From: Echinococcus granulosus
Lineage: Eukaryota; Platyhelminthes; Cestoda; Cyclophyllidea; Taeniidae
DNA: 64,000 nt
Assembly (NCBI RefSeq): GCF_000524195.1
Contig: NW_020170430.1
Coordinates: 63,799 to 127,798 of the forward strand
Direction of reading: 5' to 3'
Within the stretch, counting starts at the first letter, position 1; the number at the start of each line of letters is the position of its first letter. Shown here piece by piece: positions 14,701 through 49,100 of this stretch. The notes below the pieces were generated by a model. It saw only the letters and a list, made by a program, of their open reading frames with translations. It was not told the DNA's origin and did not search any database. A program made the translations under genes and the position numbers.

Positions 14701-17700
14701 ACCGTCGGTTCGTCAGGCTGTGTACTATCTTCCCCATGTCCCAGTCCTCATCCGAGCGTTTCTTTAAAAACTACACATTCGCACAAAAATGATGGCTTTC
14801 ACATACGGGGAAATCGCATCTGTTTGCTATCAATGCGCAAATCGCTCCAAAAAAAGCTTGCAAGCAGTACATTTGCGTGAGATTCCGAACCAACAGAGAA
14901 GTTTCAACAACTTTGCAAGTTACCATTCTAGAAGTATGCTTCGTAAAACGCTTGAGCACTGAAGTGGCTATGTATCTATAATGAGTACTAATACAAAAAT
15001 TTCGTTGCTTAAATCCAAAAATGGTAGTTTACACTAAATAACTTGGGAAGGTAACTGCGGTCCTCAATGATATAAGATAGAAGCCTTCACGACTCCACAC
15101 AATCCGCTTCCAGTGCCATGATGCATGATTAAGCAGGTGGTTTAAGAATAAACCAATGAAGCATGTCGTGCATGGGGTCCGTTACATCCGGGTTACGGAG
15201 GTACGTTGCACTTATGGAAATTAAAACTAATATTAACACACACCATATATAGGTGATAGGCACTAGTGACCACTTCATAGTGTGATATTGAGATGGTTTG
15301 CAAGCCGATAAGCGAAAGAACATAAATACGAATTGACGTAAGTAAGCAATTCCCAATTTTCACTCGCAAAAGCAGGTACAAGGCATCAAAAGTACCACAA
15401 AGAATAACCGAAGAATTGTGGATTGTTATTCAAACGTGCTAATTTATGGTTCAATTGCAGAATTTCAGTCTTTCAGAAAAAAAAAATAGTAGTCAATGCT
15501 ACGTCAGCTAATGAACTTGGTCACTACAGCTTGATAATGCGCATGGATTCATAAAGCACGAATAACTGTTCAAGAAGTTCAAGAAGGTAAAACGATGCCA
15601 GTGTAAAAAACTAGTTGTAATAAAGAATAAAAGATCTCATTTACCTGGAACTAACTATTAATAGTTCAATATACAATGTTGAAAACAATTCGGGGTGAAA
15701 TATATGGCATGGACTCAGCATTTAAACTTGCTTCCTCGTCCTAGATTATCATGGAGCCTGAGCTGGCGTAGACATCGTCACGTCTACCCTACCATCACTA
15801 ACACCATCAAGGCCTGGAGTTTGCGTTGTTTACACCAAGCATTCATCACACCACAGTTGACTGCATTGTAATACCGACGTGGGTTCCACGGAATATTTAC
15901 TTTGTGTAAAGGTCACCAGACCCTAGAATCTACATGATCACGCCTAGTAACGGTGTCAGAATATGAAAATGCAACAAATTAAAATCTGAGTTAAATGTGA
16001 TCCTTTGAGTGGGTGACCAATGGTAAGCGGTGAAGGATGTGGTGCTTACCGCAATCCAGAGATCGGGAATGGCCATGGCGAGACGGTAGTCGAACCCCGC
16101 ACCTCCCTCGTCCACGGGACGACACAGAGTGGGCATTCCACTGACCTCCTGCGTTGAAAAATAGTCAATACAGTCGCATCTATTGACATCAGCTTTTTAG
16201 CACATTACAATTAGCTTCGGTTTTGATCTGAATTTGTTTAAACTAACATTCCTAAAGATTGATCTTTCGACCATATAGTGGCAATGGAGAGCAGAGAATT
16301 TGAAAGCGGAGAACTCTCAAAATTCCAATTTTAGCCTTGAGCTCTAACCTACAGAGGTATTCAAACAAACCAAATACCAATGCCCATGGAAATCACGTAC
16401 GCACTTTTAAAATGACGTGTAGTAGGCACAAATGGCATGCTATCCAAAATATGTCACACCAATCTTTTTACTTTAATCGCAACTCCAAAAATGATAATAT
16501 ATTTTCTCAATTTTGCTACTTATATGGTTTGTCTAGAGCTAAATGAAATCTAACGCACCTCCGCAATGGTGATAACAAAGGGATACTTCTTGTGTAGGAA
16601 GCTATTGGCTAGCATGAGGTAGGTCCACGACTCCGTATCCACCGACAGCCCAAAGTACTCGCCGTAGGATCCGGAGAAATTGGTGTTGAGGCCGTGATGA
16701 TGGTAGATCATCGACATGACGCCGTCAAAACGGAAACCATCAAAGCCATACTCGTCAATCCACCACCGCAGATTCGAAAGGAGGAAGCGAAGTACTTCCA
16801 ACCTGGAATTTAAACACCGTAATTACTTAGACAGTAATCCAACTTAGTAGTCACCATGGTAGATTTATGTTTGTGAACAAGCAACCAAAGATTTAAAAAC
16901 CCCTACAATTCCACGAAGTTTATAAACATAACTGCATCATGGGATCAAAATTATGAGTAAATCATTGGCATGCCTAGATAGGTCTTAAATATGCCGTCGT
17001 AATGAGAATACTAGTGTGACTTCTAGAACACTTAATACTACGTTATAAAAGATTAGTCAAACGTACTCAGTGTAATTGAAGAGACGCGAATCCCAGAGCT
17101 GATGAACTCCTCTGGCATGCGCATGAAAGTAGCAAGAGTCTGTTCCATCGAACTGATTCAATCCATCCGCGGTATTCTTAGAGGCATGACTGTGGACCAC
17201 ATCGAGAAAGACAATGATGCCCTGGCGATGACACTCATCCACCAGCTCCCTCAACTCATCCGGTGTGCCATAGCGGCTGGAAGCAGCGAAGAAGTTGGTC
17301 ACCTGGTAGCCGAAGGAGGCATAGTAGACGTGCTCCATAACCGCCATCAACTGGATACAGTTGTAGCCTAGGTCGACGATCCTCGGCAGCACCTTGTCCT
17401 TGAACTCCAGGTAAGAGCCTACCTTCAACTCCGACGTCGCGATGCCAACGTGGGTCTCGTAGATTCGCAAAGCCCTTGGCCTAGGCGGATGGGAGTATTT
17501 GAATTCGTAGCGCTGCAATACAGTCAGGTTTCGTGAAAGTGAGCCTACCGAAGGTGGATTGTAGAATACTTGATCATATACTATGTTCTTGTCAAAGTTT
17601 TTCACGTAAGTCGCCCACGGGCTGAGACGATCATGCTTGGTTCCATCTGGGCCAATAACTAGAAGCTAAAAAATTGAGAGAATAAACAGCAAACCAATTA

Positions 17701-20960: not shown

Positions 20961-22043
20961 TCAGAATTCTTCAAATATTGTGAAATTATTTTCTGAGGCC
21001 TTCTGATCTGCATTTTCCTGTACTGAAGGTCTGGGCGTCATCGCGTAGTCGTAAGGTGGGGAGAGCTTTTGCTCGAAGAGACCATCCCAGTCTATGCTGA
21101 CGAACCACGGATGGTTTCGAATCTCCCGCGGGCCCTCCCTCGCCAACGATCCGTATCGTCGGGACACCTCGCGCTGCAGCAACTGTCGCAATAGGTGACG
21201 CAGCAATTCACCTATGCGTACCAGCCCACTCGCGATGACATTCCCCAGTGGATCGCATCGGGGATCGAGGATCTTGGCGTAAGTGTTGGCAACATCACGA
21301 CTGACAAACGGCGACGCACCGACAACCATCTCGTAGAGCAGGATCCCAAAAGCCCACCAATCCACAGAAAAACCATATCCACGATGCTTTAAAATCTCTG
21401 GTGCTAGATACTCTGGTGTCCCACAAAAGGTGTACGTCCGATGGATCACAAATTTTGCAAAACCGAAGTCAACCAACTTCACATAGCCGTTGTGAGAAAT
21501 CATTATATTCTCCGGCTTTATATCACGGTGAATGATTTGCAGGTGGTGGAGATACTCCAAGGCCAAAAGCACTTGTGCCCCGTAGAATCGGGCTAATCGT
21601 TCATCGAAGCGATGCAAATGTCGCAGCATTGAAAAGAGATCACCACCTGGCACGAATTCCATCACTAAATAGAGTCGTTTCAAATCCTGAAAAGCATAGT
21701 TGAGCTGCACAATAAAGGGCATGTCGCACAGAGCCAAGATAGCGCGTTCGTTGTTGACATGGGTGACGTGACCCTTGCTTATGACAAACGCCTTCAGCAG
21801 TATCTTGGCGGCGTGCCAGGTCTGTGCTGTTTTGTGTCGAAGGAGGCGTACCTCACCGAAGCCCCCACGTCCAAGCGTCTGGTAGAAGAAGAAGTCAGAG
21901 CACTTGCTCACGGGTAGTTTTGGCGGCTGCAAGCGGTGGTTGGCCTTGTCGCGCTTGACCTCCACCAATTCGTCAATTCGCCTCCTCTCTGCAGTCAAAA
22001 AATCCACCCAAATAGAAGCACCGGAGCTCCCGATTGACCGCAT
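20961..22043 (-). CDS. PKA-like AGC-family protein kinase, single exon
   Basis: A 360-residue Ser/Thr kinase similar in length and layout to the cAMP-dependent protein kinase catalytic subunit. Visible motifs: glycine loop GRGGFGEV (residues 58-65), ATP lysine K80 in HAAK, alpha-C glutamate E99 in NNERAIL, catalytic loop HRDIKPEN with D174, DFGFAK with D192, and an activation segment RTYTFCGTPEYLAPE whose T205 matches the PKA activation threonine. The C-tail ends IFEEF, an FxxF hydrophobic motif like that closing PKA. All catalytic residues are present, so it should be active. Unlike every neighbouring protein gene it has no intron, which suggests a retrocopy. An in-frame TAG sits two codons before the ATG, supporting the start. 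That same TAG-GAG could alternatively be a splice acceptor joining an upstream exon. It may be a divergent PKA-C or PRKX type; substrates and regulatory-subunit binding cannot be judged. Confidence 0.9.
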   Translation of the reverse strand: MRSIGSSGASIWVDFLTAERRRIDELVEVKRDKANHRLQPPKLPVSKCSDFFFYQTLGRGGFGEVRLLRHKTAQTWHAAKILLKAFVISKGHVTHVNNERAILALCDMPFIVQLNYAFQDLKRLYLVMEFVPGGDLFSMLRHLHRFDERLARFYGAQVLLALEYLHHLQIIHRDIKPENIMISHNGYVKLVDFGFAKFVIHRTYTFCGTPEYLAPEILKHRGYGFSVDWWAFGILLYEMVVGASPFVSRDVANTYAKILDPRCDPLGNVIASGLVRIGELLRHLLRQLLQREVSRRYGSLAREGPREIRNHPWFVSIDWDGLFEQKLSPPYDYAMTPRPSVQENADQKASENNFTIFEEF

Positions 22044-31520: not shown

Positions 31521-34500
31521 GCCAAGACAACTGATTCAAAATATTTTACTACCACCAAAAAGGGTGAAATTTTTGAACTTAAAGCCGAACTACAAAGTGA
31601 GAAGAAAGAAAAGAAGAAGGAAGCGGTCAAAAAGGTTATTGCTAGCATGACCGTTGGGAAGGATGTTAGGTATCTCGCTTCATTCTGAGTTATTTCAGCG
31701 CCTTGTTTCCCGATGTGATGAATTGCATGCAAACGGACAACCTGGAACTGAAGAAACTCGTTTACCTGTACCTTATGAATTACGCCAAAACTCAACCAGA
31801 TACTTCGATAATGACCGTGAGCACGTTTGTCAGGGTGAGTTGCGTAGTAAGGAAACTATTTCTTAGGATTGTGATGACCCTAATCCATTAATTCGGGCTT
31901 TGGCGGTACGAACAATGGGTTGCATTCGCGTTGAAAAAATCACTGCATATTATTGTGATCCACTGCGAAAGTGTCTAAAGGATGAGGATCCATACGTTCG
32001 CAAAACCGCTGCAATTTGTGTAGCAAAACTCTATGACATTGATCCAACACTGGTTGAGGACAATGGGTTCCTCGAGTTACTAAAGAATCTTCTGAGTGAT
32101 AGCAATCCTATGGTTGTTACGAATGCCGTAGCTGCGATTTCTGAAATATTAGAGACAACGCAGTCGGATGCGGCTATAAACCTTTTGAAAATTGATCAGC
32201 AGATTGTAAATAAGCTGCTGACGGCATTGAATGAGTGTAACGAGTGAGTTCTCATTGTCAATGACTGTGGCCCCTGATCATTTTCGCAGTTACACTCGTG
32301 TAAACTACGGTTCTTCTTTCTAGATGGGGTCAGGTTTTTATTCTCGACGCCATTACGGAGTACACTCCTTCAGATGAGCGGGAGGCTCGTGGTATTATTG
32401 AGCGAGTCATGCCCCGTCTACAGCATGCCAACGCAGCAGTTGTCCTGTCTGCAGTCAAGGTGATCATTCGCACCCTCAGTTTCATTGATCCGGTGTCTGA
32501 TTTAGCCCAGACCACCTCCAAAAAATTGGCACCTCCTCTGGTGACTCTACTCTCTGCTGAGCCCGAGATTCAGTACGTAGCTCTGCGAAACATAAACCTT
32601 ATCTCTCAAAAGAATAAGGACCTTCTCAAACAGGAAATCAAGGTGATCCAATACTTTCGTATCTTATTCCTTGTCTTCCAGGCCTTTTTCGTAAAATACA
32701 ATGACCCGATTTACGTGAAGTTGGAAAAACTCGATATCATGATCAGACTAACAAATCAGGCAAACATCGCTCACGTTCTCGCTGAATTGAAGGAATATGC
32801 AAAGGAAGTGGATGTAGATTTTGTGCGCAAGGCTGTGCGCGCTATTGGACGGTGTGCCATCAAGGTTGAGGCGTCTGCTGAACGCTGCGTCAGCACATTA
32901 GTTGAGTTGATAAATACCAAGGTCAATTATGTCGTTCAAGAAGCTATTGTCGTCATAAAAGTAAATCACCTGTGCTTTTTATCGGCTTCATCTTTACTAG
33001 GATATTTTCCGTAAGTATCCCAACAAGTATGAGAGCATTATTGCTAATCTTTGTGAAAATTTGGATACTTTGGATGAACCAGAAGCCCGAGCCTCAATGA
33101 TTTGGATTATCGGCGAGTACGCAGAACGTATTGACAACGCTGACGAGCTTCTGCAATCCTTTTTGGATGGGTTTCATGATGAAAACACTCAAGTTCAACT
33201 CCAGCTTCTCACAGCTACTGTAAAACTGTTTTTGAAGAGACCCTCTGACACCCAGGTACGTAGATCTAAGTCTCCTCAGTCGGCTTTTGTATCGCCTTAA
33301 ATTTCTAATGTACGTGTTTGTAATCCTTGTAGGAACTTGTTCAAAATGTCCTGGGTTTGGCCACTTTGGAATCAGATAATCCTGACTTGCGCGATCGTGG
33401 CTATATTTATTGGCGTCTTCTGTCGACTGACCCCACTGCAGCGAAGGAGGTCGTTCTTGCGGAGAAGCCGTTGATCTCTGAGGAGACTGACTTGCTTGAA
33501 CCCTCCCTATTAGATGAATTGATTTGCAACCTTGGCAGTTTAGCCAGCGTCTACCATCAGCCCCCGAGCGCATTTGTAGAGGGCAAGCATATCTCGAGAA
33601 AGCACCTCTTTGCCACTTCAGCAGCTGCTAGTAAAGCCGGTGAGGCTGGCGGACTGCAGCAACCTACTACTACGGTCATTCCTACCCAAGAGACATTGAT
33701 AGGAGATCTCTTGGATATCGATGCTGTGCCGAACACATCGATGGCACCACCAGTTGGCTACACAGGTACTCCTATCCCTGGGATCGACGTGGAAGCACCG
33801 GATCTCCTTGGTGACGGTCTTGACGACCTCCTTCCTGGTGTCCCTCCGAAAACTTCCGCTGCGGCACCAACGGGTAAGTAGGAAGCCCCTTACTTGGGTC
33901 TGCTATCTGTGTTCTTGAATTTAATTAAGCCTTTTCATAATTTACAAAGGTGCGTCTGAGTCCACCGCTGATGCGCTGGCGGATATTTTTAGAGGGATGA
34001 GTGCAGGTAGTGGGGTATCCTCAACTTTCACCGTTCCCGCTAGCCACGATCTTGCCTCCATTGTGATGACTCCTGCCGCCTCTTCTGCCTACGTTCCACC
34101 GCCTACCACATGGTTGGAGTCCTCGCGGGGCAAGGGTCTTGAGATTGCAGGTACATTCAGTGTGAGCCCCTCCACCAATCAACCTCAGATGGAACTCACC
34201 TTCACGAATAACGCGCTTTCTCCTATGACCGGATTCGCGATCCAGTTCAATAAGAACAGTTTCGGACTGGCTCCCGCTCAATCTCTCAATGTGCCCAGCC
34301 CTCTGCAACCCAAGCAGTCGGCTAAAGTGATACTACCTTTAGGATTCGGCAATCAGGTTGTGAAGGTGGATCCACTTATGAACTTGCAGGTGGGTGTGCC
34401 AATTTTTTCAATTTTTTCCCAAACCTTTATGTTCACTTTTGGCACAGTACAGTGGTATTTTTGCGCATCAATCTGCAGTCCAATTAAATTCTTTTTTTAT

Positions 34501-35839
34501 TTAGTAGCAGTAATGACAGCAATAATTTGCAGTTTTCATTATCAGAATAGTATTTCAATAGTTTTTTGCAATAGCAGCTCTTTTGAAAGCAAATAGGTCT
34601 TGCTTTTGATATAATTGGTTTCTTTAAATAATTCAACCCTTCAGTTTACCCCTGTTTTTACCGATTCAATCATGAGTTTTGGTCGTTTATCGAGATACCT
34701 GGGTTTATCAAATGTTTTTTGGTGTTTCATACAAATAAAAGCTGCACAGGGCACTAGTTTGAATGCTGATGACATTTTCCAATAGGCTGGATCTCCTAAG
34801 TATTATACCTGTTTGAGTTAGAGGTATGTGCCTAATAAGCCGAATAATGCCTTTTTTAGAACGCGCCCTTCTAGGTTTTGCGTGCATTTCACCTTTACCT
34901 TTTAAGTACATGGCCGTCATTAAGACATTTCATGCTTATCTTGCCGAGGGAGATGGAGCTCGCCTTTTTATTTGTAGTTTGACTCGCTGATGACCGCCGC
35001 TTTTTGTTGCCTTAAAGGTGGCAGTGAAGAACAATGTGGACGTCTTCTACTTCGCCTGCCTCGTGCCCATCCACGTGCTCTTCACAGCGGCGGGAGAGAT
35101 GGAGAAGATGGTTTTCCTCGCCACTTGGAAGGACATTCCCGCTGAAAACGAGCAGCAATTCGTTCTCACTCCCCTCTCTCTGGATGCGGGTGTGTTACCA
35201 CAGCTTCTTACAAAAGCGTAGTCCTTCGGTCGTGCCCTAATCGGCCCAACCCTTGTCCGGTTCGATTAATGAAAGGCACCCTGTGACAACGCGCTATAAA
35301 TTTGCTTCGTGTCCAGTTTTAATTATTTTTAAGCTAGCTTTTTCAAAAACAGCTAAGAGATTTGTATCTCTCTTTAGGTATATAAATCTTTCTCTTTTAT
35401 CATTTTTTGCTCTTGAATCTCTATTTTCTGTCTTGCGGTGCAGTTATTCCTAGTGTTGTAGATGCCTGTTCACAGAAATTGCGCAACAATAATGTCTTCA
35501 CCATTGCCAAGCGCAACGTCGATGGGCAGGATATGCTCTACCAGTCGATCAAGCTGTGCAACGGAATCTGGGTTTTGGCAGAACTGAAAATTCAACCTGG
35601 CAATCCGTCCTACACAGTGAGTGCTCCTGTCTTCCTTTCTCAGTGATATAACCTCATATTTGTTAAAATAATCACATTTTGGCATTTTATTGAGCTGATG
35701 CCTTCGAACTTTGATCATGCGACCTTTTTCTTACCCCTATCCCATTGTTTTCTTTGCTTTCTAGTTGTCTCTGAAATCGCGGGAAATGGATGTGCACCCC
35801 TATGTGAGGGAGGCATTCCACGGAATTCTCTCCAATTAA
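31521..35839 (+). CDS. AP2B1: Beta-adaptin, large subunit of AP-1/AP-2 clathrin adaptor
   Basis: Links clathrin to cargo membranes at the plasma membrane or trans-Golgi; many invertebrates share one beta subunit between AP-1 and AP-2. Exons: 31521-31669, 31699-31834, 31867-32243, 32324-32642, 32682-32960, 33001-33255, 33333-33873, 33950-34389, 35018-35189, 35444-35616, 35765-35839. They are in phase throughout and encode 971 residues. The trunk starts [20 protein letters not shown] and carries the conserved [39 protein letters not shown] and [17 protein letters not shown]. The Ala/Pro-rich hinge contains LLDID, which fits the clathrin box L-phi-x-phi-D/E. The ear domain ([34 protein letters not shown]) is complete. 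Introns 1 and 2 are only 29 and 32 nt. The first recognisable exon follows a splice acceptor and has no ATG, so the start lies in a missing upstream exon or comes from a spliced leader. Confidence 0.95.
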
Positions 35840-37117: not shown

Positions 37118-40100
37118 TCACTCGCTCGAATTAACCAATCCCCTGTCGCCTGCGGGGAGTGACTGCGTGAGGCCTCCGAATTGGCTGTTATCCTCCAATT
37201 GAAACATTTGTACAAAGAGATCGGGAAAGTGAAGTTCGGGACGGGATTGCCGCAGATCCCGCACAGCTGCACGATGAGCCTCATTCATACTTGAGAGGCT
37301 CGGAAGGAGCTTTATTAGTTGTGTGAACCTTTCATCGCTCGAGTACCGCACTAAATCGGGGGAAATAAAGCGTTCGTCAGTGCAAACACTCAAACTTTAA
37401 GCTTACACGTCGAATCTATCACCCCTGTCCGCATTTTATGTTTTAAAACTCCAAATTCTATCTACAACTACTATCTATTAAGCTCTACCTGAACACTTTA
37501 GACTTATCCTAAATTGACTAAGCAATCGTGTCGTATGCTCATATGTTTCATGCATTCCACTTTACTTATTTTAACTAACAGTGGGCTGATTCAGTAATCC
37601 AGTTATTCAAAATGCGAGAAATCTGTTTCATTCTTCGGTATGCTCGCAGTTTTAACAAAACATTTGTGTAATTTATCATTATCTACGCATGTGCTTGGAA
37701 CTTAGTTCAATGCAAACAAAATATGTAACGATACTGAAAAATGGAATCTCGGCAGATACGTTTCGTACCTGTGATGTATTGCTGAAGGGCGGAGGCGGCA
37801 TGATTGTAAATTTCGTAAATCTTTTCTGCCTCAAGTAATTTCTGGTTGGCTGCAAGAAAAGCATAAATAATCAAAAGTAAAATAGGGTCTAACATCATTC
37901 GAGACGGAAGTATCAATGTATTGAATAAGTCTCAAGCTAACCCACCTCTAAACAAATTATCATTTAACTTATTGGAGGGCGCAGCTCATGATGCGAAGCC
38001 CATTAGAAATTCAACTTATGAATTTGATGGACTCTTGGTCAAGCCGAGTGAAGTATCTTGATTTATGCACTTAGTAAATTCTAAGGAATCGCTCATAGAC
38101 CGTATATGGAATGCTATTTTTTTCAATAGAACAGCGAAGTATGCTGGAACTTACAGTCTTTCACTGTTTATCTCACATGCCGTTTGTATGGCTATAACAA
38201 AACTGCTTTTGCACTCGTATTCCCTTCAAAATTTCCATAGATAACCCAACAACCAAAAAATATTTTAACCTTCCTCTCGTAAAATGAACTTTTACACCTT
38301 ATGTCAAAGTTTGGCTAAGTTTTGTTCTTTTCGATTTCGGGAATCTGTAAAGCTAAGTTGAAAAGAATACATTGGTAGAGAAACACTTACATCCGCGAAG
38401 GAAGATGATACTGCAGAGAAGAGCGGCCTCCGTATTGTCTAGACTTAGGGGTCCCAGGAAGCCGGTGAGTTCGTAAAAGTGGTCTACCATGGGGTTGATT
38501 TGGGGGAACTCTGCGAGCAGATGGCGTCTCTCATGGGGTGAAAAGTTGTAAAAGTTGAAGTCGCCGCCTGGCAGGGCCTCGCGCGATAGCTGCACCAACA
38601 CAATGGGGTACATGGAGGCTTGCAAGAGGAACTTTGTGTCTGCCCGGGGCAGGTCGCAGAACCCAGGGATAGCGCGTGCAAAGCGAATAATCTGGTGTGC
38701 GTGTGCCTCAAACTGCACCATCATGTGCGCCCACATCGTCGTCGATGTCAACTCCGATTCGAGCAAAAAATTTCCCGTCACCTGCACGTATACCATTTTA
38801 CTAAATTATTTTCAGTAAAGCATTATTAAATCGTCTCAGTTTTGCTCTTAGTATTAATTTTCAGCCATAAGAACCGGTCGGATCCATCGCACAACTTAAT
38901 TGCAACTTTTAATGCACATACCCGCTGCCGACAGTTATCTAAGTGGACGGCCGCTTCAGATACATAATCGGCGAATGCTTCAAGAGACATCTCCGAGGTG
39001 AAGGATACTGACGTCTGCGGAGGCATACCCTTTCCCATTGGTGCCCCATTGTGACTCCTGGTGTCAGGTTCAAACGACTTTTGATTGGAGTAAAGACTGT
39101 TTATTGGCAGGTAGTCATCCGTTGTAAATCGATCTGAATAAAGTAAACATTTGACGTATGGTTCAGTTTGGTAAGGTTGTTCATTCCTCTTAAACTGAGA
39201 GAGCGAACAATTCGAACTTCAGTACTCTTACCCTCAAATTTTTACCAAATTTTTATTTTCAGTTAATTAACTTGGTAAATTGAATTTTTAGGGGTTAGGG
39301 TAGCCTGAACTCGTTAAGTAATTTAATCTAACATGAGATAAAGAAATACGCACTTCTCTACCGGGTCGATTATGATAAAAGGGAAAAGCGATTAATGTGC
39401 CATTTCGAAGAAATATTGCCTCCATCTAACTGAGCACTTACCTTCACCCAGGGCAAATGACTGAGCTATTGAAGAGACACCTGGCTCGTCAACCTTTCCC
39501 ACCATCAGAGCGTCTACGGACAAGTGGCCTCGAGACCGATTTGCCAGTTTACCCGCCTCATCCTCAGGTGAACTGCCCCCTCCTCTCGCCATTGCTACTA
39601 AATCGCTCATCACCACCTCTGTTTGCCCCACCGCCGTCGCTGCCACTGCCTTTCTCGCAGCGGAAGTCCCATTTGCACTCTCGTTCTCTTTTTTCGCCTC
39701 CATAGGCTGAAGGCTGCTGATCCGCATGTGTCGCAGTGGCGATGGCTGCTGCAAACCATCGATCGGTGGAAAGTGTTCACCTACATGACCAGCCGTCTGG
39801 ACCTGCGTCGGTCTCCCCGCTGAGATCGTCTCGTTGCTTCCACTACCGCTGCTACTGTTGCTGCTACTGCTGTTTGCTGACTGAACTTGCTTGGCCAGTC
39901 GTATGAGACTCGATAGCTGCAATGAAACCGTATATATACGTATAGAATTCGCTGGAATTATGCTCAGTGTACCGTACGCATACTCAATTGATAAAAAGTA
40001 TCGTTTGTATTTTTGATTCACTATAACCAAATAAATATGATTTAAAATATCATTTACAACCATGCATTTTACTAAAGATAATTGCGTATATAAATACAAC

Positions 40101-43100
40101 ACCCTCGCAGTATCTTAAAATAAAAAATTAGAGTTTACGTTCGTTGTTTTTTTTGAGCAAAACGGCTTGTTGGGTTACTTTAAAAGCAAACATTTGAAAA
40201 AGGCTGGAAGCTAGGTTGGTGAATTTGATCAGCCTCTTGTCTGTTTTTCACTGAGATCAAGTTTTTGTATGAATTGATTAATTATAAAATGTTACTTCAC
40301 ATATACTTCTACTTATTTACTATTTACCCCTCCCTTTTTCAGCTTATCATAGTGTTGAGTCTTTGTGATTCTGTGAAGTGATCTAAATTTATGAATCACA
40401 ACCGACATCTTGCATCTAATAATGGATCCATGCATGGAAGGTAAAAACTAATGGAATATTTTTTTTGGAACAGTCATGCAGCAATATTCATTTGACAATG
40501 ACCAAACATACGGCCGCCTTTTCGTAGCTGCTCATGGTAACCGCAGAGGCGGAAGAGTTGTATAAATGTGAAGTGTTCGTGGGCAGAGTCGCAGTTGCTG
40601 AAGCAGTCGTTCCTGAACCCTGCTGATGTTGCTGTTGCTGCATCGCAGTAGTCTGCATGGTGGGGAGAATAGGGTCATCAGGGCTGGCAGAAGCACCGAC
40701 GGGGTTATGCCGCGGACCTCGCAACGAACTTGCGTCGGACCCAGCCCGAATCCTCGGTGTCACCCCACTATAGCGACTCCCGTAAGTGTCTATCGCTGCA
40801 GCTACTCCCGCAGCACTCGCATACTGCGGCATCTCACTCTCACCTGCTAACTCCGCCAGCTTGGCGAAGCGCTGCTGTTCCAGGCTCGCGTCGGTCTTGT
40901 TGGAGGGGGAAATGGCAGTGATTTCAGGTAGACCGACGTGACCAGTCGTCTCATAGTAGGAAGGGTAGTTCGCAGGAGTCCAGGGAGGAAAAAGGAGGTC
41001 TTGTGTGGCTCCACTTTCTTCCACCTTCGTCGGATGGTATAGGGAACTGCCTGTCTGCTGCAGTGTCTGTTGCTGCTGTTGTTGGTGATGGTGGTGCTGG
41101 CGTTGTTGTTGCTGTTGGTGCTCGAAATAGACCGTCGTGTTTGAAGGGTTCGACAACCCAGAAGAGGGTGGAGGTGTTTGAGTAGTGGAAGAACTGAGCT
41201 TTGATTTGATTCTTTCGATTTCTATGGCACACATGTGTTTCACCGCATTCGGTTGTCTCCCAATTCGACTGCCTATAGTTTTAAAAGTATCCTGCTTTAT
41301 CAACAAGACCGTAAGGCCGCTTTAATCGAGATAGCATAGTAGATTAGCGGCAAATATGAAAAGCTGACGTGCTACGCAAATAGAACTAACCTCAGATGTT
41401 ACTTTACTTCAATCTTAAGCCACCTAGGGGCGTAGACAAATCTTAGAAAGTTTTGAGTGATAAGCTAGGAATGCTAAGATTTTATTCGTTTCCTAAAAAA
41501 ACTGAGAATCTTGACAATATCAATCAATAAATAATGTAATAATTTTACCCGAAATAAATACGGTTTTACTTGCAGGTTAACGTTCTTATTAAGTTATAGT
41601 CCGTAAATGTATCTTTGGACAGAAAACAACAGGTAAACGTATGGTATTATCAACATTAATGTATTTGGATGATTCAAACGACCATGACCAAAACTACCTC
41701 AAGCCAATAAAAAGCACGAAATTTGAGAGTATCAGGGACAGCATTAAAAGTAGCACATTACAGGATCAAGGATATAATTATGTATTTTTATTTAATCATG
41801 TAAATTCAGTCAAATAAAGACGGTCTACAAACCTGTTGTCAAATTCCTTTTTATCCATAGGAATCTACCAAACTAAAAAAATTTCCTGTGCGGCCCAGAT
41901 AATGAAGTAACGAGTAGATTAAGCTGGAGGTAGCCTGTCTTCTTACCATCTTTTGACATGCCAACAGAGAGGCACTTGCGATAGCGGCAACTCTTGCAGT
42001 TGTTGCGGGTGGCTAAGGTGATGAGGCACGTACCTCCGTTGCGGCAGGTATACCGCTGATTATCCCTCTCACTTATCGTCCTTCTGAAAAAGCCCTAAGA
42101 GTAGAGATATTTATGGTTAGGCAACATTTAATCTGTTAGGTCTGTGTAAGCATTCACTCCCCAATAAATGCGCACCTTACAGCCTTCGCAGGTGATGGCA
42201 CCGAAATGGAATCCGGACGACTGCGCGCCACAAACGCGGCAAGGGATGATCGAGATGTCATTGGCCGGACACACTGCAGCCCCTACAATTAGTTGTAGGA
42301 AAAGGAAAGTCGAATTCACCAAATTTTTTAGGATGCGAAACATGATTTAATGGTGTCTGATATTCGTGTGTACGTGTGTGTGTGAGTCACAGCAATTTCT
42401 TTGCATTTCTGGGTGGGAAACACACAAGCGACAATCATACTTGTTCCTCCAGTTTCATAAGCTCTTTCTAATTGGAAAAAAAGACAGAGCTGCTGAAACA
42501 ATTAACTGTGCATGGGCTTAGCTTATGAAAAATTGGGCTCTTGTGCGACAGGTAGAGATCATCGTGAGTTATTGAAATCGGCAAGTGCCTTACACTTAAC
42601 CAGAGTTTAGAGAACTTCAATTACTTACCCTCAAAATAAGAATTAATGCATTAAATTTAAAAAACGACAAAAATTGGAAAAGGACTTTGTTAATAAGGAT
42701 TTTTTTGCAAAATCGATGCTTTCGTTTATTTTAATTTACTTACAAATCTTCGCCCTAATATTATAAGAATAAATAGCAGACCAATAAAGATATTTATATT
42801 AAAAGACAGGAAGTCTATCCAAAAAGGTGTTGATAAAGTCTATCACTGAAACGTTGTCGTTACTCAAGGAGAATGTGCCAACAAAATTCATCTTTCTGCC
42901 GTGTTCGTGAGCTACCAGACGTCTTGATGGTTGAGAAACTTTCTTGTAGACCGTTAAAGCCTGAGAGCTCATTGTAACTGTGGGGCCAAAGATGGGTACG
43001 TGAGTGATAAACGACCGCTCAGATTAACTGGAGCAGTCAGGACACGACCTTCAGAACACTGTACGCGCGTTTGCGCGCGCTGGTCTGAGTCCTTACATGG

Positions 43101-46100
43101 GGGCCACCCACCAAAGCGTGAGAACGCACGTCCACTCACCTGCTCGGTGTTCTCTTCGCTGTGCACGCGTTCACGCACTGATTGTCCCTTCCCGGCCCCC
43201 CCCCCAGTTTCCCAGGCTGACCCTTACATATAACCACTTGTCCCGGAAGACACTGTGATGTACGCTCGCGCTTATGCATGACAAAAGCGGAATACCAGTG
43301 TACTCCTGCACGTAAGGCAAAAGTGGGAAACAAAATATGCATGTGTTTTTACTGCTGCTGATGCTGTTACAAGGAATTCCGCATACTCAAGTAAAGGCGA
43401 GAGGAGATGTCGTATTTTTTTCAGGTAGCGAATTTCTTTATACTTTGGCGGACTGCAGTCGTTGTCCTTGCACTAATAGGTAATCAGTAAGAAGGTCTCG
43501 ATTTGTAACAAGTTGTAGACCCCATGTAATTTATTGAGCGTTATATCAATTATTAGTTGTCAAATTAAATATGATTGAACAGATGGGTTTCACCTGATAC
43601 CCATTCCATCTCCGATTTCTCAACTGCATCGCAAAATGGCATACTGTTCGAGTACTTGTTTTGCATTCCGTAGCTTCATTATACAGAAATAAAAGTGGAA
43701 TTCCATTGGCAGTACTCTTCACTCTTCTGACTTGAAACTTTATCCCTGGGTTGGAGTCACTAATTATTTCCACCAGCAGTAATTCCCAATCCATCAAACT
43801 CAACTGCCCTGATTAGAACGGCCGGACTCCAATGAATTATTTTTTCCTCTCTACCTTTTTTATATTTTGTGAAATGTATAATGGCTTTGCTTTTAGAGAG
43901 CCATAAGATCAGTCATTCACCTGTGAGGTAGGCACATCCAGGACTTCCCCTTTTACCTGTACCAAATGAATAGTAGTGTTCTATTAATAAGGATTAATAT
44001 CCGGGATATTATCAGACCCATCTCATCGACCACACGCTATCACTTTCAACACCATTAGCTTGCATTAGTAGTAGGCACTCCTAGCATAAATTGTCACTGG
44101 ACCATTCGCTTTGACCGCCTCAGTTTTACTTCATTCCCCAAAGGTAAAAGTGAAATTCCAACAAGATATTCCTTTCACCCATTCTAAGTTGAGATGGCAG
44201 CTCAATTGCTATTTAAAAAATATTTTTGGCGAAGTCGATTTACTTACCTTCAGCGTAAACTCCAAAATCCATCTTATTTGTCCTAGTCATGAAGCAATAC
44301 AAGCGACGTTGCTTCCCTTATGTGATGTAATTTCTACACCACGTTATTTGTCTACTTTAACGAAATCTATAAAACATGGTAGCAGATCATTTAGACCTTC
44401 GGGCAAACGGGTAACATTCTGTGGCAATTTTGTTCCCCCTTCCTCTGCCATGCGCGAACCGCGCAGTTATACGTGAAGGGAGAGGACGCAGTCACCCAGA
44501 TCCGAAATGCATGCTTTGGCAGATGGAATGTGAATTGCAACGCTTGAGGCTTGATAGCTTAGCGAATTGAGGAAAGTGACTCAGTGTTGAGTCACCACTT
44601 TCTGCACCGCTTTCTGGACGCTCTCTTGTTGTTATTATTCCAGGAGCGCCTTCCGCCTGCGGAACACCAAGTCACCCCCACCTTTCTGGTTATTTGCCCT
44701 TCTAAAAGGGTCTTGCTTTTTCCCCTTACCTACTAAAGCCAGCTTTAATTTTAAGATACACAGTGTATCCGATCATGTTGCACCGATCTTCAAGCTAATA
44801 GTGACGCTCAAGTTGATCACGAGGAACCCAAAATTATCCCGATCCCAACTATCATTCCGGCCTGAATTTGTGAGAGCTCGTCACAGTTAGATAAATACTA
44901 ATTATGGAAGTTGCACTTGAGAGTAAGATTTTCGCCTCACCGGGGAGAACCATGCCAATTCGAAGGCACTTGTAGAATCGACATCTTTGGCAGTGGGTCC
45001 GAGTGTCCTTGTTTACCTCACAGGCGTTCACCTTGGAACAGGAGTACTTGGCGTAGTTTTCATTCTTGGAGCTCCGGATGAAAAATTTCTGTGTGAAGGA
45101 AATAATACAAAGAGGAACTATAATAACAATACACTTTGGTGTCTTAAGGAGGCCGTCAAGCACTTCCTGACCCCAATTCAAACACCGCTAAGGCGTGACA
45201 TGCTCAACCCATTGGTCTCTACGGGAATGCGCCTAAACCTCAACCACCACCAATTCTGTTGAAGCATTGATGAGCTGAGGCGCAGTTATCAAGATTCTGC
45301 CAATCAAACAAGCGTGCTGCTTATTGATAAGAGTTACGCTATTGGTTGAGAGGTGCACGCGCGCGCAAGGTAACAGGCGCGTTAATCTAAGGGATGTGGG
45401 AAGTGGCTCGCGTACCGTTTCATCGGTAGCATTGCCATCCCCATCCCACCCTACGCCTTTCCCCTATTCTCCGGAAAATGGGCCACTTTTGACAGGGCTG
45501 TTGGTTCACGTGCTGTACACCCACATTCTGCAGGATAATACTCAATCGTGCGCACTTGGATGGATGATGTGCAGTTCATTGGCTCTCTCGCACTCCCACC
45601 TCCTATTCCATATAACGAGATTTTGCTACATCCACAAGAGACTGATACCATAAAATTTGAGTGTGTAATGACTTTCAGCAAAATGATGCAGCCCGCCTAG
45701 TGTAGACTGCGCTCAACCATAGCATCGTAGGAATTATAGTCAACTTCTGAGTTCTTTGTAAAATCAATCTTTATGTCACCTTGAAGAATGCCAAAACTGG
45801 TAGAGTGTCAATTTCAAATGATCTTTTTAGACATAATGAGTACTTTTTCTAACATAAGAAGCCTTGATTATCAAAAGCTCTTGACTGATCATTCGGCAGG
45901 GTGTGAAACCGGTCTCGGAATTCTGTTGTCGAGTTAAAGACTTTTATGAAGGCAGGGCTAATATTGCTCATCTTAAAGGTAACTAATGGGATTAAAATGA
46001 ATCACCAGAAATTACTTGCTAAAATTCCCCTTCAAGCTAATAAGTAGTACCGATGCATTTCACAAGAAATGTATACATTCCCATCAAAATTTTCAGTGGG

Positions 46101-49100
46101 ATAGAGGGGGTGGAGGAGATAGGAATGCTCCATTTATTAATGAACGAGGCCATTCTCCTCTCTGTCTCTTTTAATACATTTACACCACTTCTACGACCGC
46201 TTACGTCTCCACTGGAGATTTGTTTGTGTTTGTGTGTAAACGTAATTGGTCTGAGTGTGCAGCGGTGCCCTGCAAATGCGGGAAAAGACTACGTGGTGTA
46301 TAAGCTTGTGTTCAAGTGACACATTCCTCTGTCAAAATGGCCTGCTTTTGCTCAATGTTTCTAAGCTTACTTCTCCCCACAAATTCTTGTAGCGTGGATT
46401 TACTCATGCAAAATTAACGAGAAATTTGTAAATCTAATGCAAATAACTTCTTCCCAAAGCCAGCCGATTTACTCTTTAACTGACTTAGATAAAAAAATTA
46501 CGATTTTAGATATACATTAGAATTAGAGTAATTTACTGATCGCTTCAAGTTAACTCCATTTCTTAAATTTGATTTAAGGTGATCAATCACTAGGCCGCTG
46601 ATACACTTCCACCTTTTGAGACACATTGCTCATTTTGCAAACTAGAAGTGACAATTAGTTCCTCGGCCCTAATCACTGGAGACTATCGGCACACAGAGTT
46701 CCTTAAAATGAGCCTGTCATCTTTTAGGTCACTAAATTATTTCAAAATGAAAGGTTGCCAACTGATGTATATACATTTGCACCTAAGTAGCCCACCTTGC
46801 ACGCTTCACATACGTAGGCGTTGCAGTGAAATCCAGCAGAGACATCACCGCAGATGTCACATGGGGTCTTCTCCTTCATCGCTGTCACGTCATTAGTGAC
46901 CTTGGCTCTGGTTGACCCCGAGGACCTCGACACTGCGATCATGGTAGGCACGCGTTGTCGAAGGCTTTCCTTCGCTACCTGACAGAGCTGACTGTTCGGC
47001 GGTACTAGGTGGTTCATCATGGTACCCAGCATCTGCCGATAGCCAGTTTGATCGAAGCAGACATCCTGGGGGTTGACCACCAGCTTCTGGCTCGAGGTAT
47101 CCATTGCGACGTACTGGTTGGCCTGGTAGATACCAGTAGAGTAGCCGGGCTGGAAACCAATGGGCTTGTTTATTTCGCTAGTCTCATACTGACGCGAGTA
47201 GGTAGAGTAATAGGGGTCACTTTGGGGTTGCGGAGGAGAAAAGTAGGTGTGGGTGGGAGTGGCAGAGGAGGATGGAGGTACCGCTAAGGGGTACTGAGAA
47301 GGGTCTGAGAGATGGCTTCCTGATGGCATGAAGTCCTGTGGCTCGTATCCCGACGATGTGTGCGCCTGGGAGAGATGCATTTCGAGATCCGGTGATGGTG
47401 AGCAACTTTCGGGAATGCCTGTGGTGTGAATCAATGGTGATCGTTCCACACTCGAACTTGAAGGCGAACAAAAATAAAACCAATTACGATACAACTTTGA
47501 CGGCCTTCTAGGTATGCTAAAATGTTTGAAGTCACCTGTAATTGCCATTTGGGAGTGGTGTGCTAAACAGAAAGAGACAAATGTACCGGTGGTTAGGCTA
47601 CATATTCGTAGACTTGTCCGCTTGTTCGGCAAGCCCGAATATGTACATGAGTATGTCGATTATACCCGTTTCGACTAACTTAAGTTGGTACATTGCACAC
47701 ATTCGAACACATAGACGAACAAATGGTATGCGCGTAACGAACACACCGACACCATTACGCACAACTAAGACCTCGGCATCATAGTCTATATGATCAGACA
47801 TACGAAAGCTAAATACCTTGAAACAAAACGGATCTGTGGAGTATGTTACTTAAACACTGATTTATGGAGGCCAGGCTAGAATAGTGTACCGTAAACGTAG
47901 CTAATCAAGTAGGATGAAGTGAAACTTAAAGTTATCCCAGTTCAAATCATTTTGCTATTTGTTGTTCCCTTATTGATAGCGATAAATTTGTTTTTTACGA
48001 TCTGGTGATGGAAGTGGATATTAAAAGCCACTTTAATGGTAATAGTCTTGAAGTTTAATCCAAAAATTTGAACGGTGGTGTGCGTGCGAGTGCTGAAGTT
48101 TTGATGCAATTAAACAAGTGGGAGGGAAGGCCTATCTTATGAATGAGGTATAAATTTGGCCATGGGGTGAGGTATGAGATAGGGCGAGACATAGCGAAGT
48201 ATGCTTGTGATTTTATGGGATCTGTACGCGCATATGCTGCAGAGTGCGACCGAATTTGTCTGCAAACTCGGCTTAGTTTACCTAAGCGTGGGTACATGCT
48301 GAACAAACGCAGTCCCGTTTCTCTACAACTTAGACCTCCACTTATACCACACGCATACACAGGCGTTCATTTTACGGCTCCCTCCTTCGAGTGGAAAACA
48401 TAGACGACTCGAAAGGGTGATGCGTCCTATGCCCTTGAAATTTCAGCCGGGTTGACCAGTATACTATTGAAAACTCTCAACAGATTTAACCTATTTAAGA
48501 ACACTTTCCTTCAAATCTGTTAAGAAAAAATAGTTTACAGACAGAGGTCGACCTAAAATTTTACTACTTTTAAAATGTAAATAATGTACTCAAGATTACA
48601 AAGCAAATTTATTTCTTTATTTGGAATTACACCTCATGCTTCAACAAAGAAGGAAAGGAGAGCGGCAGCTGTAGAAGCACCTAAGAAGTGATATTGAGGG
48701 ATATACAGTCAAGTGAAAGCTTTTAAATTAACCGTGTCCTATAGATAACGAGACGCTACTGTACATCTTTAAGCCATCGTGATTGCCATTATGATCATTT
48801 TTAATGAAGAAATACGATTTTTAGCGTTATAGCAATGAGATTGTACTGTAGAGTGCAAAATTCCGGAGTATTTCGATTAAGTGCATTCATTTTTTGATCG
48901 TCTCTCAAAATAACTGCAAATATCGCTGTACTGGTCATTCTTTCCTTGAACTCTTGTCACATGCCGAATGCCCATGTATTCCCCAGGGGAGAGACAATCG
49001 ACCGTCGTGTAGTCGTGATTTTATCCTTCCAATGACGCATGCAATGCTGCGTGTAAGTATCAAATTGCGCGGTTGACGCGCTCGTACACACAGACTCAAC

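What the first reader, a model, noticed from the sequence alone, without database searches (positions are those of the whole stretch)
41947..47456. Two DBDs of the nuclear receptor share the same exon structure, a sign of exon-pair duplication
In both DBDs an intron falls directly after the first zinc finger (after CEACK and after CEGCK, both phase 0). In both, the second-finger exon is exactly 148 nt and ends in phase 1 with a single G. This matched architecture, with opposite P-box identities (CEACKK versus CEGCKG) and a linker of only about 15 residues, suggests the 2DBD receptor arose by tandem duplication of a finger-1/finger-2 exon set, followed by divergence of the first copy. That 2DBD receptors exist in flatworms is established; the duplication reading is inference from gene structure.
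Basis: partly seen in the sequence, partly recalled or inferred. Interest (0 to 1): 0.78.

Follow-up and report, generated by a model that had tools for sequence, protein, structure and literature searches.

The report
Two-DBD receptor with ancestral exon borders
A tapeworm gene-control protein carries two DNA-gripping domains whose coding pieces are cut at the same places; those cuts also occur in ordinary one-domain receptors, so they do not prove how the second domain arose, but they would let splicing make hybrid versions.

Summary
On the minus strand, both DBDs are split directly after finger 1 (CEACK| and CEGCK|, phase 0); both finger-2 exons are 148 nt and end in phase 1 with G. The gene is a known kind: a 2DBD nuclear receptor, one of three found in this cestode-like genome.

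The inference is weaker than stated. The finger-2 end (GM + 3 codons + 1 nt) recurs across receptors: 6 of 6 DBDs of the three 2DBD genes have it, but so do 8 of 12 single-DBD receptors found here. The finger-1 border is also in one single-DBD gene, E78-like (1 of 12). Equal length is not kept in the paralogues (148/145, 220/142). So the borders do not separate tandem duplication from acquiring a second NR1-type DBD. Trees place both DBDs near NR1; in one row set they are sisters (95/85), in another this dissolves.

A new lead: matched phases allow in-frame exon skipping. One annotated hemichordate protein has finger 1 of DBD-I joined to finger 2 of DBD-II at exactly this border.

The parts
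46796..47548 (-). coding exon 1 (753 nt): A/B region + finger 1 of DBD-I (CDICGDVSAGFHCNAYVCEACK), ends phase 0; the ATG is one in the open frame, not proven to be the start
44941..45088 (-). coding exon 2 (148 nt, 0 to 1): finger 2 of DBD-I, ends GM+3 codons+1 nt
   Evidence: Pfam zf-C4 48.1 bits
42176..42282 (-). coding exon 3 (107 nt, 1 to 0): linker + finger 1 of DBD-II (CEGCK)
41947..42094 (-). coding exon 4 (148 nt, 0 to 1): finger 2 of DBD-II, ends GM+3 codons+1 nt
   Evidence: Pfam zf-C4 55.4 bits
40512..41272 (-). coding exon 5 (761 nt): C-terminal extension (GSRIGRQPNAVKH) and hinge
39442..39916 (-). coding exon 6 (475 nt): hinge
38922..39133 (-). coding exon 7 (212 nt)
38391..38781 (-). 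coding exon 8 (391 nt): part of the ligand-binding domain
   Evidence: Pfam Hormone_recep E 4.4e-4, 20.2 bits, below its cut-off 23.5
37769..37849 (-). coding exon 9 (81 nt): presumed ligand-binding domain
37119..37350 (-). coding exon 10 (232 nt): presumed end of the ligand-binding domain, AF-2-like LFVQMF, stop
   Evidence: AF-2 reading by comparison with the consensus quoted in PMC6844482

Best explanation
The window holds a 2DBD nuclear receptor (NR7 / 2DBD-NRA kind; by elimination the gamma paralogue). Its two DBDs share exon borders because each is an ordinary receptor DBD that kept old receptor introns: a phase-0 intron after finger 1 and a phase-1 intron after GM+3 codons. DBD-II is bounded by phase-1 introns on both sides, so it is a 1-1 symmetric cassette that can be added in frame. 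The most likely history is that such a cassette of an NR1-like receptor was added in an ancestor of bilaterians, by tandem duplication within the gene or by recombination with a near relative; after that DBD-I diverged (CEACKK). The borders do not choose between these two routes. Shown: borders and phases as read from DNA, presence of the borders in other receptors, three paralogues. Inferred: cassette history, its date (from the presence of both DBDs in hemichordates, amphioxus, rotifers, molluscs and flatworms) and function as a two-DBD transcription factor.
For: Borders and phases. Three 2DBD genes, 6 of 6 DBDs with both borders. Same 3' border in 8 of 12 single-DBD receptors (8 or more GT of 12 at a fixed site about 9e-8 at 1/16 each); same 5' border in 1 of 12. 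[quoted passage not shown] Finger-1 exon of DBD-II enters in phase 1 and is 107 nt in 3 of 3 paralogues (in one of them the sequence further upstream was not readable). Trees: DBD-I one group (99/98), DBD-II one group (97/84), both beside NR1 (53 rows). The core pattern found both DBDs in 21 of 23 chosen proteins, flatworms to amphioxus.
Against: No cDNA. The upstream phase-1 intron that a complete cassette copy would give DBD-I is not seen in 3 of 3 paralogues (the frame is open upstream). Exon borders of 2DBD genes of other phyla could not be read from DNA. I+II sisterhood is unstable when two receptors with P-box EACKG are added. Only 1 of 12 single-DBD genes has the finger-1 border, so its wide age rests on one gene here, on E75 isoforms (exact border not given) and on recalled vertebrate gene structures.
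Confidence: 0.7

Rival explanations
1. Tandem duplication of the finger-1/finger-2 exon pair inside one NR1-like gene, followed by divergence of the first copy (the first reader's reading; it is one of the two routes left open in the best explanation).
For: Both borders in 6 of 6 DBDs of 2DBD genes, together in 0 of 12 single-DBD receptors of this genome. In the 53-row tree DBD-I and DBD-II are one side of a branch against 22 other rows, 95/85; in the 55-row tree the split DBD-II + NR1 without DBD-I has AU p 0.044. DBD-II is a 1-1 symmetric module.
Against: Each border occurs in single-DBD receptors. I-II identity is 36-56%, and in score below the best of 26 single-DBD matches in 24 of 24 pairs, for DBD-I and for DBD-II. 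With two EACKG rows added, the other rows form one side in only 14% of bootstraps. In the 52-row tree none of four alternatives is rejected (p 0.17-0.21).
Confidence: 0.45
2. Recombination or fusion: an NR1-type receptor gained a DBD from another receptor gene; the equal borders are ancestral introns of both donors.
For: DBD-I's best solved-structure match is ERR gamma (67.8 bits), DBD-II's is NR1D1 (89.9 bits). Pairwise data. DBD-I groups with an EACKG single-DBD row at 94/71 in one tree. Wu et al. 2007 conclude a recombination event (PMC1810520).
Against: DBD-I with ERR costs 6 to 8 log units, p 0.065-0.17: disfavoured, not rejected. No single-DBD gene with both borders was found here (0 of 12).
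Confidence: 0.35
3. The borders coincide because introns were inserted independently at like sites in both DBDs.
For: AAG before the finger-1 intron in both DBDs is a context often named for intron gain (recalled).
Against: Same nucleotide, same phase, both borders, 6 of 6 DBDs; the 3' border recurs in 8 of 12 single-DBD receptors with 6-8 of 9 donor consensus bases.
Confidence: 0.03

Closest known systems
2DBD nuclear receptors (NR7; 2DBD-NRA1 / gamma of Schistosoma and cestodes)
   Same: Two C4 DBDs in tandem, P-boxes CEACKK and CEGCKG, 17 residues between the DBDs, RIGRQPN extension; ten coding exons, the number reported for Eg2DBDalpha (PMC6844482)
   Different: Nothing in kind; model of 1101 aa against 830 for Eg2DBDalpha
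Taenia solium P0059 ('Nuclear receptor ROR-beta') and Cichlidogyrus P0001
   Same: 85% identity over 763 aa; 80% over 184 aa spanning both DBDs
   Different: P0059's annotated model lacks DBD-I and finger 1 of DBD-II
E78/E75/Rev-erb (NR1D/E) single-DBD receptors
   Same: Phase-0 intron directly after CEGCK in the E78-like gene of this genome; insect E75B has one finger through 5' exon choice (PMC4499807, passages)
   Different: One DBD; no intron at GM+3 in the E78-like gene (frame open for 120 aa)
Nr2f, Ftz-F1, HNF4, TR, NR4A single-DBD receptors
   Same: [quoted passage not shown] PMC8608329, PMC4854414)
   Different: No intron directly after the finger-1 CxxCK in those genes here

Membership tests
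2DBD-NR (NR7) | two complete C4-type DBDs in one reading frame | tested here: met
   gene model; zf-C4
2DBD-NR (NR7) | P-P module EACKK-EGCKG of group A (PMC10497141) | tested here: met
   CEACKK and CEGCKG
2DBD-NR (NR7) | 17-22 residues between the DBDs in most members (PMC10497141) | tested here: met
   17 residues between GM and the first zinc-binding Cys; the paper's way of counting was not checked
2DBD-NR (NR7) | DBD-I and DBD-II group with those of other 2DBD-NRs | tested here: met
   a knirps-type row falls inside DBD-II
2DBD-NR (NR7) | C-terminal ligand-binding domain | tested here: inconclusive
   exon 8 alone 20.2 bits, below the Pfam cut-off 23.5; relatives such as P0059 bear PF00104
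2DBD-NR (NR7) | homodimer, no heterodimer with RXR (stated for Sm2DBDalpha; abstract, passage) | not testable with these tools
   needs biochemistry
tandem exon-pair duplication | same borders and phases in both copies | tested here: met
   6 of 6 DBDs
tandem exon-pair duplication | borders not already present in single-DBD relatives | tested here: not met
   8 of 12 and 1 of 12 single-DBD receptors; both together 0 of 12
tandem exon-pair duplication | the two copies are each other's closest relatives | tested here: inconclusive
   95/85 in one row set, dissolved in another

The most novel reading that the evidence does not exclude
Because both DBDs keep the same phase-0 border, skipping exons 2+3 (255 nt here, 255 and 327 nt in the two paralogues) joins finger 1 of DBD-I to finger 2 of DBD-II in frame and makes a single hybrid DBD with P-box EACKG; skipping exons 3+4 leaves DBD-I alone. 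Animals may use this to switch one gene between two-DBD, hybrid and one-DBD receptors. A Glandiceps talaboti protein (P0070) already has the hybrid form, either by splicing or by exon deletion, unless its annotation is wrong.
Probability: 0.2. Interest if true: 0.6.

Novelty: new member of a known kind. Interest (0 to 1): 0.34.

Why it matters
2DBD receptors are widespread but how they gained the second DBD is open. The result says which gene-structure argument cannot settle it alone (the borders also occur in one-DBD receptors) and what could (donor families carrying both borders; dense trees). It also yields a concrete, cheap test: look for exon 2+3 skipping in existing RNA-seq. A hybrid receptor would change how DNA-target choice in this family is read.

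Tried and rejected
Literature: nine searches. Human TR/RAR exon sizes (a 148-nt finger-2 exon in TR) are recalled; one search gave no sizes, so they are not used as evidence.

Independent intron gain: rejected as above. ERR as donor of DBD-I (suggested): not favoured by trees.

Knirps/Egon (NR0A) as a DBD-II relative: seen in one tree on a long branch, not pursued. P0060 and P0063 (CEACK followed by non-receptor residues) look like gene models running into an intron after CEACK; they agree with a border there in a mussel and a fluke but are not proof. The pattern that pulls out DBDs failed once and was corrected.

Rows left out of trees: Bugula and Watersipora from all (one core match each); P0070 and seven other single-DBD candidates, with Tcrassiceps, Rotaria, Neoechinorhynchus, EmultilocGamma; also NRB, C210, C242, Hdiminuta, Mcorti, Saccoglossus, the knirps row and own C263, HR96, HR3. 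One search used 12 of the 24 pairs plus three new pairs and a Saccoglossus DBD-II, and left out own C74, C263, HR96, HR3. C256 was in no tree (its finger-1 exons were not fully resolved).
Full report
What is there. The window lies in an unnamed 103.6-Mb, 272-contig assembly. On the minus strand 47548-37119 a ten-exon model gives an open 1101-aa protein with two receptor DBDs. Best matches among the proteins then in hand: Taenia solium P0059, 85% over 763 aa; Cichlidogyrus P0001, 80% over 184 aa. Published Eg2DBDalpha also has ten exons (PMC6844482, part 1 of the Results). The search with the zf-C4 family gave 27 exon-level matches, which I resolved into 15 receptor genes: three 2DBD genes (window = C223; C210; C242) and 12 with one DBD. 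This is a lower bound.

The observation. All stated borders, phases and lengths are right. The exon between them matters as well: finger 1 of DBD-II sits on a 107-nt exon that enters in phase 1 and leaves in phase 0, in 3 of 3 paralogues. So DBD-II is a 1-1 symmetric cassette (1 to 0, 0 to 1).

What the borders mean. I looked at the same two places in each of the 18 DBDs. A GT exactly GM + 3 codons + 1 nt is in 6 of 6 DBDs of 2DBD genes and in 8 of 12 single-DBD genes (NR4A-, TLL-, HNF4-, FTZ-F1-, COUP-, TR-, HR39-like and C263; not E78-, HR3-, HR96-, TR4-like), with 6-8 of 9 consensus donor bases in the eight. Eight or more GTs of 12 by chance would have a probability near 9e-8 (taking 1/16 per site). 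[quoted passage not shown] The phase-0 border after CEGCK/CEACK is in 6 of 6 DBDs of 2DBD genes and in 1 of 12 single-DBD genes, the E78-like C270. One of the six, C242 DBD-I, uses a GC donor. Both borders together: 6 of 6 and 0 of 12. Family labels of the single-DBD genes are mine, from P-box and neighbouring motifs, in part recalled. Hence the shared architecture is what two ordinary receptor DBDs could show; it speaks against independent intron gain but does not choose the route. Equal length is not a kept trait: finger-2 exons are 148/148, 148/145 and 220/142 nt.

Trees. In the 67-row tree DBD-I is one group (100/95); DBD-II is interrupted by a knirps-type row. In the 52-row tree, without fast rows, DBD-I (100/95) and DBD-II (96/91) plus one single-DBD row with P-box EACKG stand apart from the rest (91/80); holding I+II together costs 0.96 log units (p 0.188), and none of four alternatives tested is rejected (p 0.17-0.21). 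In the 53-row tree I+II stand against 22 others with 95/85; holding II or I with NR1 instead costs 2.72 (p 0.374 each), I with ERR 8.14 (p 0.065). Adding two EACKG rows dissolves the sisterhood (one side in 14% of bootstraps; I+II costs 0.02, p 0.492), while DBD-II+NR1 without DBD-I has p 0.044, DBD-I+NR1 without DBD-II p 0.071 and DBD-I+ERR p 0.118. I chose and changed row sets after seeing trees, so these p values are guides only. Pairwise scores run against close sisterhood: in 24 of 24 proteins both DBDs score better with the best of 26 single-DBD receptors than with each other (taking the best of 26 tilts this). There are only 72 columns. Conclusion: both DBDs look NR1-like; sisterhood is possible and mildly favoured, not shown.

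Comparison with print. Wu et al. 2007 (PMC1810520; abstract, sections 7 and 9 and search passages) already say that the extra DBD came by recombination and, in the legend of Fig. 6, by DBD duplication in an ancestor. Wu and LoVerde 2023 (PMC10497141; abstract, sections 17, 23, 24 and search passages) give the P-P modules and linker lengths that the window meets. Intron positions inside DBDs are used for HR96, RXR and COUP-TF in PMC8363021 (section 21 and passages). In the parts read I found no border comparison of DBD-I and DBD-II.

A consequence worth testing. Equal phases make two in-frame skips possible: exons 2+3 (255 nt) and exons 3+4 (255 nt); the sums are multiples of 3 in 3 of 3 paralogues. 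P0070, annotated in Glandiceps talaboti, looks like the first: finger 1 matches Ptychodera DBD-I at 20 of 22 and DBD-II at 15 of 22 positions; finger 2 matches Ptychodera DBD-II at 38 of 49 and scores 225 with it against at most 138 with any of 24 DBD-I rows; its C-terminal part is 53-54% identical to two Ptychodera 2DBD receptors. The first half does not separate I from II on the mean over all 24 rows (91.9 against 91.7); its best single row is a Ptychodera DBD-I (122 against at most 106 for DBD-II). Among the 144 proteins that the three searches gave me (the first search listed 120 of its 296), P0070 is the only one that I read as such a hybrid; four others with CEACKGFF (P0076, P0105, P0112, P0126) look like a separate receptor type with one DBD in the model. 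63 of the 144 bear both CEACK and CEGCK. Whether P0070 is a spliced form, a deletion or a wrong model is unknown. Insect E75B, which has one finger through 5' exon choice (PMC4499807, passages), is a precedent for such use. Biomphalaria pfeifferi P0043 has another N-terminus running straight into KFF, the start of the DBD-I finger-2 exon, which fits the same border in a snail.

Verdict. Confirmed observation, known receptor kind, over-read inference; one testable lead.

Noticed in passing
P0016, P0023, P0128 (Ptychodera); P0044, P0051 (Bugula, Watersipora); P0026, P0029 (acanthocephalans): Proteins with CEACKK (CEACKR in P0128) and CEGCKG finger-1 motifs in hemichordates, bryozoans and acanthocephalans; the words Hemichordata, Bryozoa, Acanthocephala and Saccoglossus do not occur in the main text of PMC10497141. 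In the two bryozoan proteins the full core pattern fitted only the second DBD.
   Followed up: partly
P0070: Annotated Glandiceps talaboti receptor with a hybrid DBD, finger 1 of DBD-I type and finger 2 of DBD-II type.
   Followed up: partly
P0072-P0120 (many insect knirps/egon-like): Knirps-type single DBDs are among the best single-DBD hits to the window's DBD region and have a GRRSN.FK extension beside the window's GRQPNAVK; one tree puts one inside DBD-II on a long branch.
   Followed up: no
L011 (C242), finger-1 exon of DBD-I: GC donor (AAG|GCAAGA) at the border after CEACK in one paralogue.
   Followed up: no
P0055 against the groups of PMC6844482: E. multilocularis protein named '2DBD gamma' has the long DBD-I spacer that Alvite et al. 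assign to group beta: a naming clash.
   Followed up: no
window 32304-34593 +; 20964-22043 -; 17060-17662 -: Neighbours: adaptin exons, a protein kinase, an alpha-amylase domain.
   Followed up: no
window 41000-41140 and 39830-39900: Q/H-rich and S/N-rich runs in the hinge exons 5 and 6.
   Followed up: no
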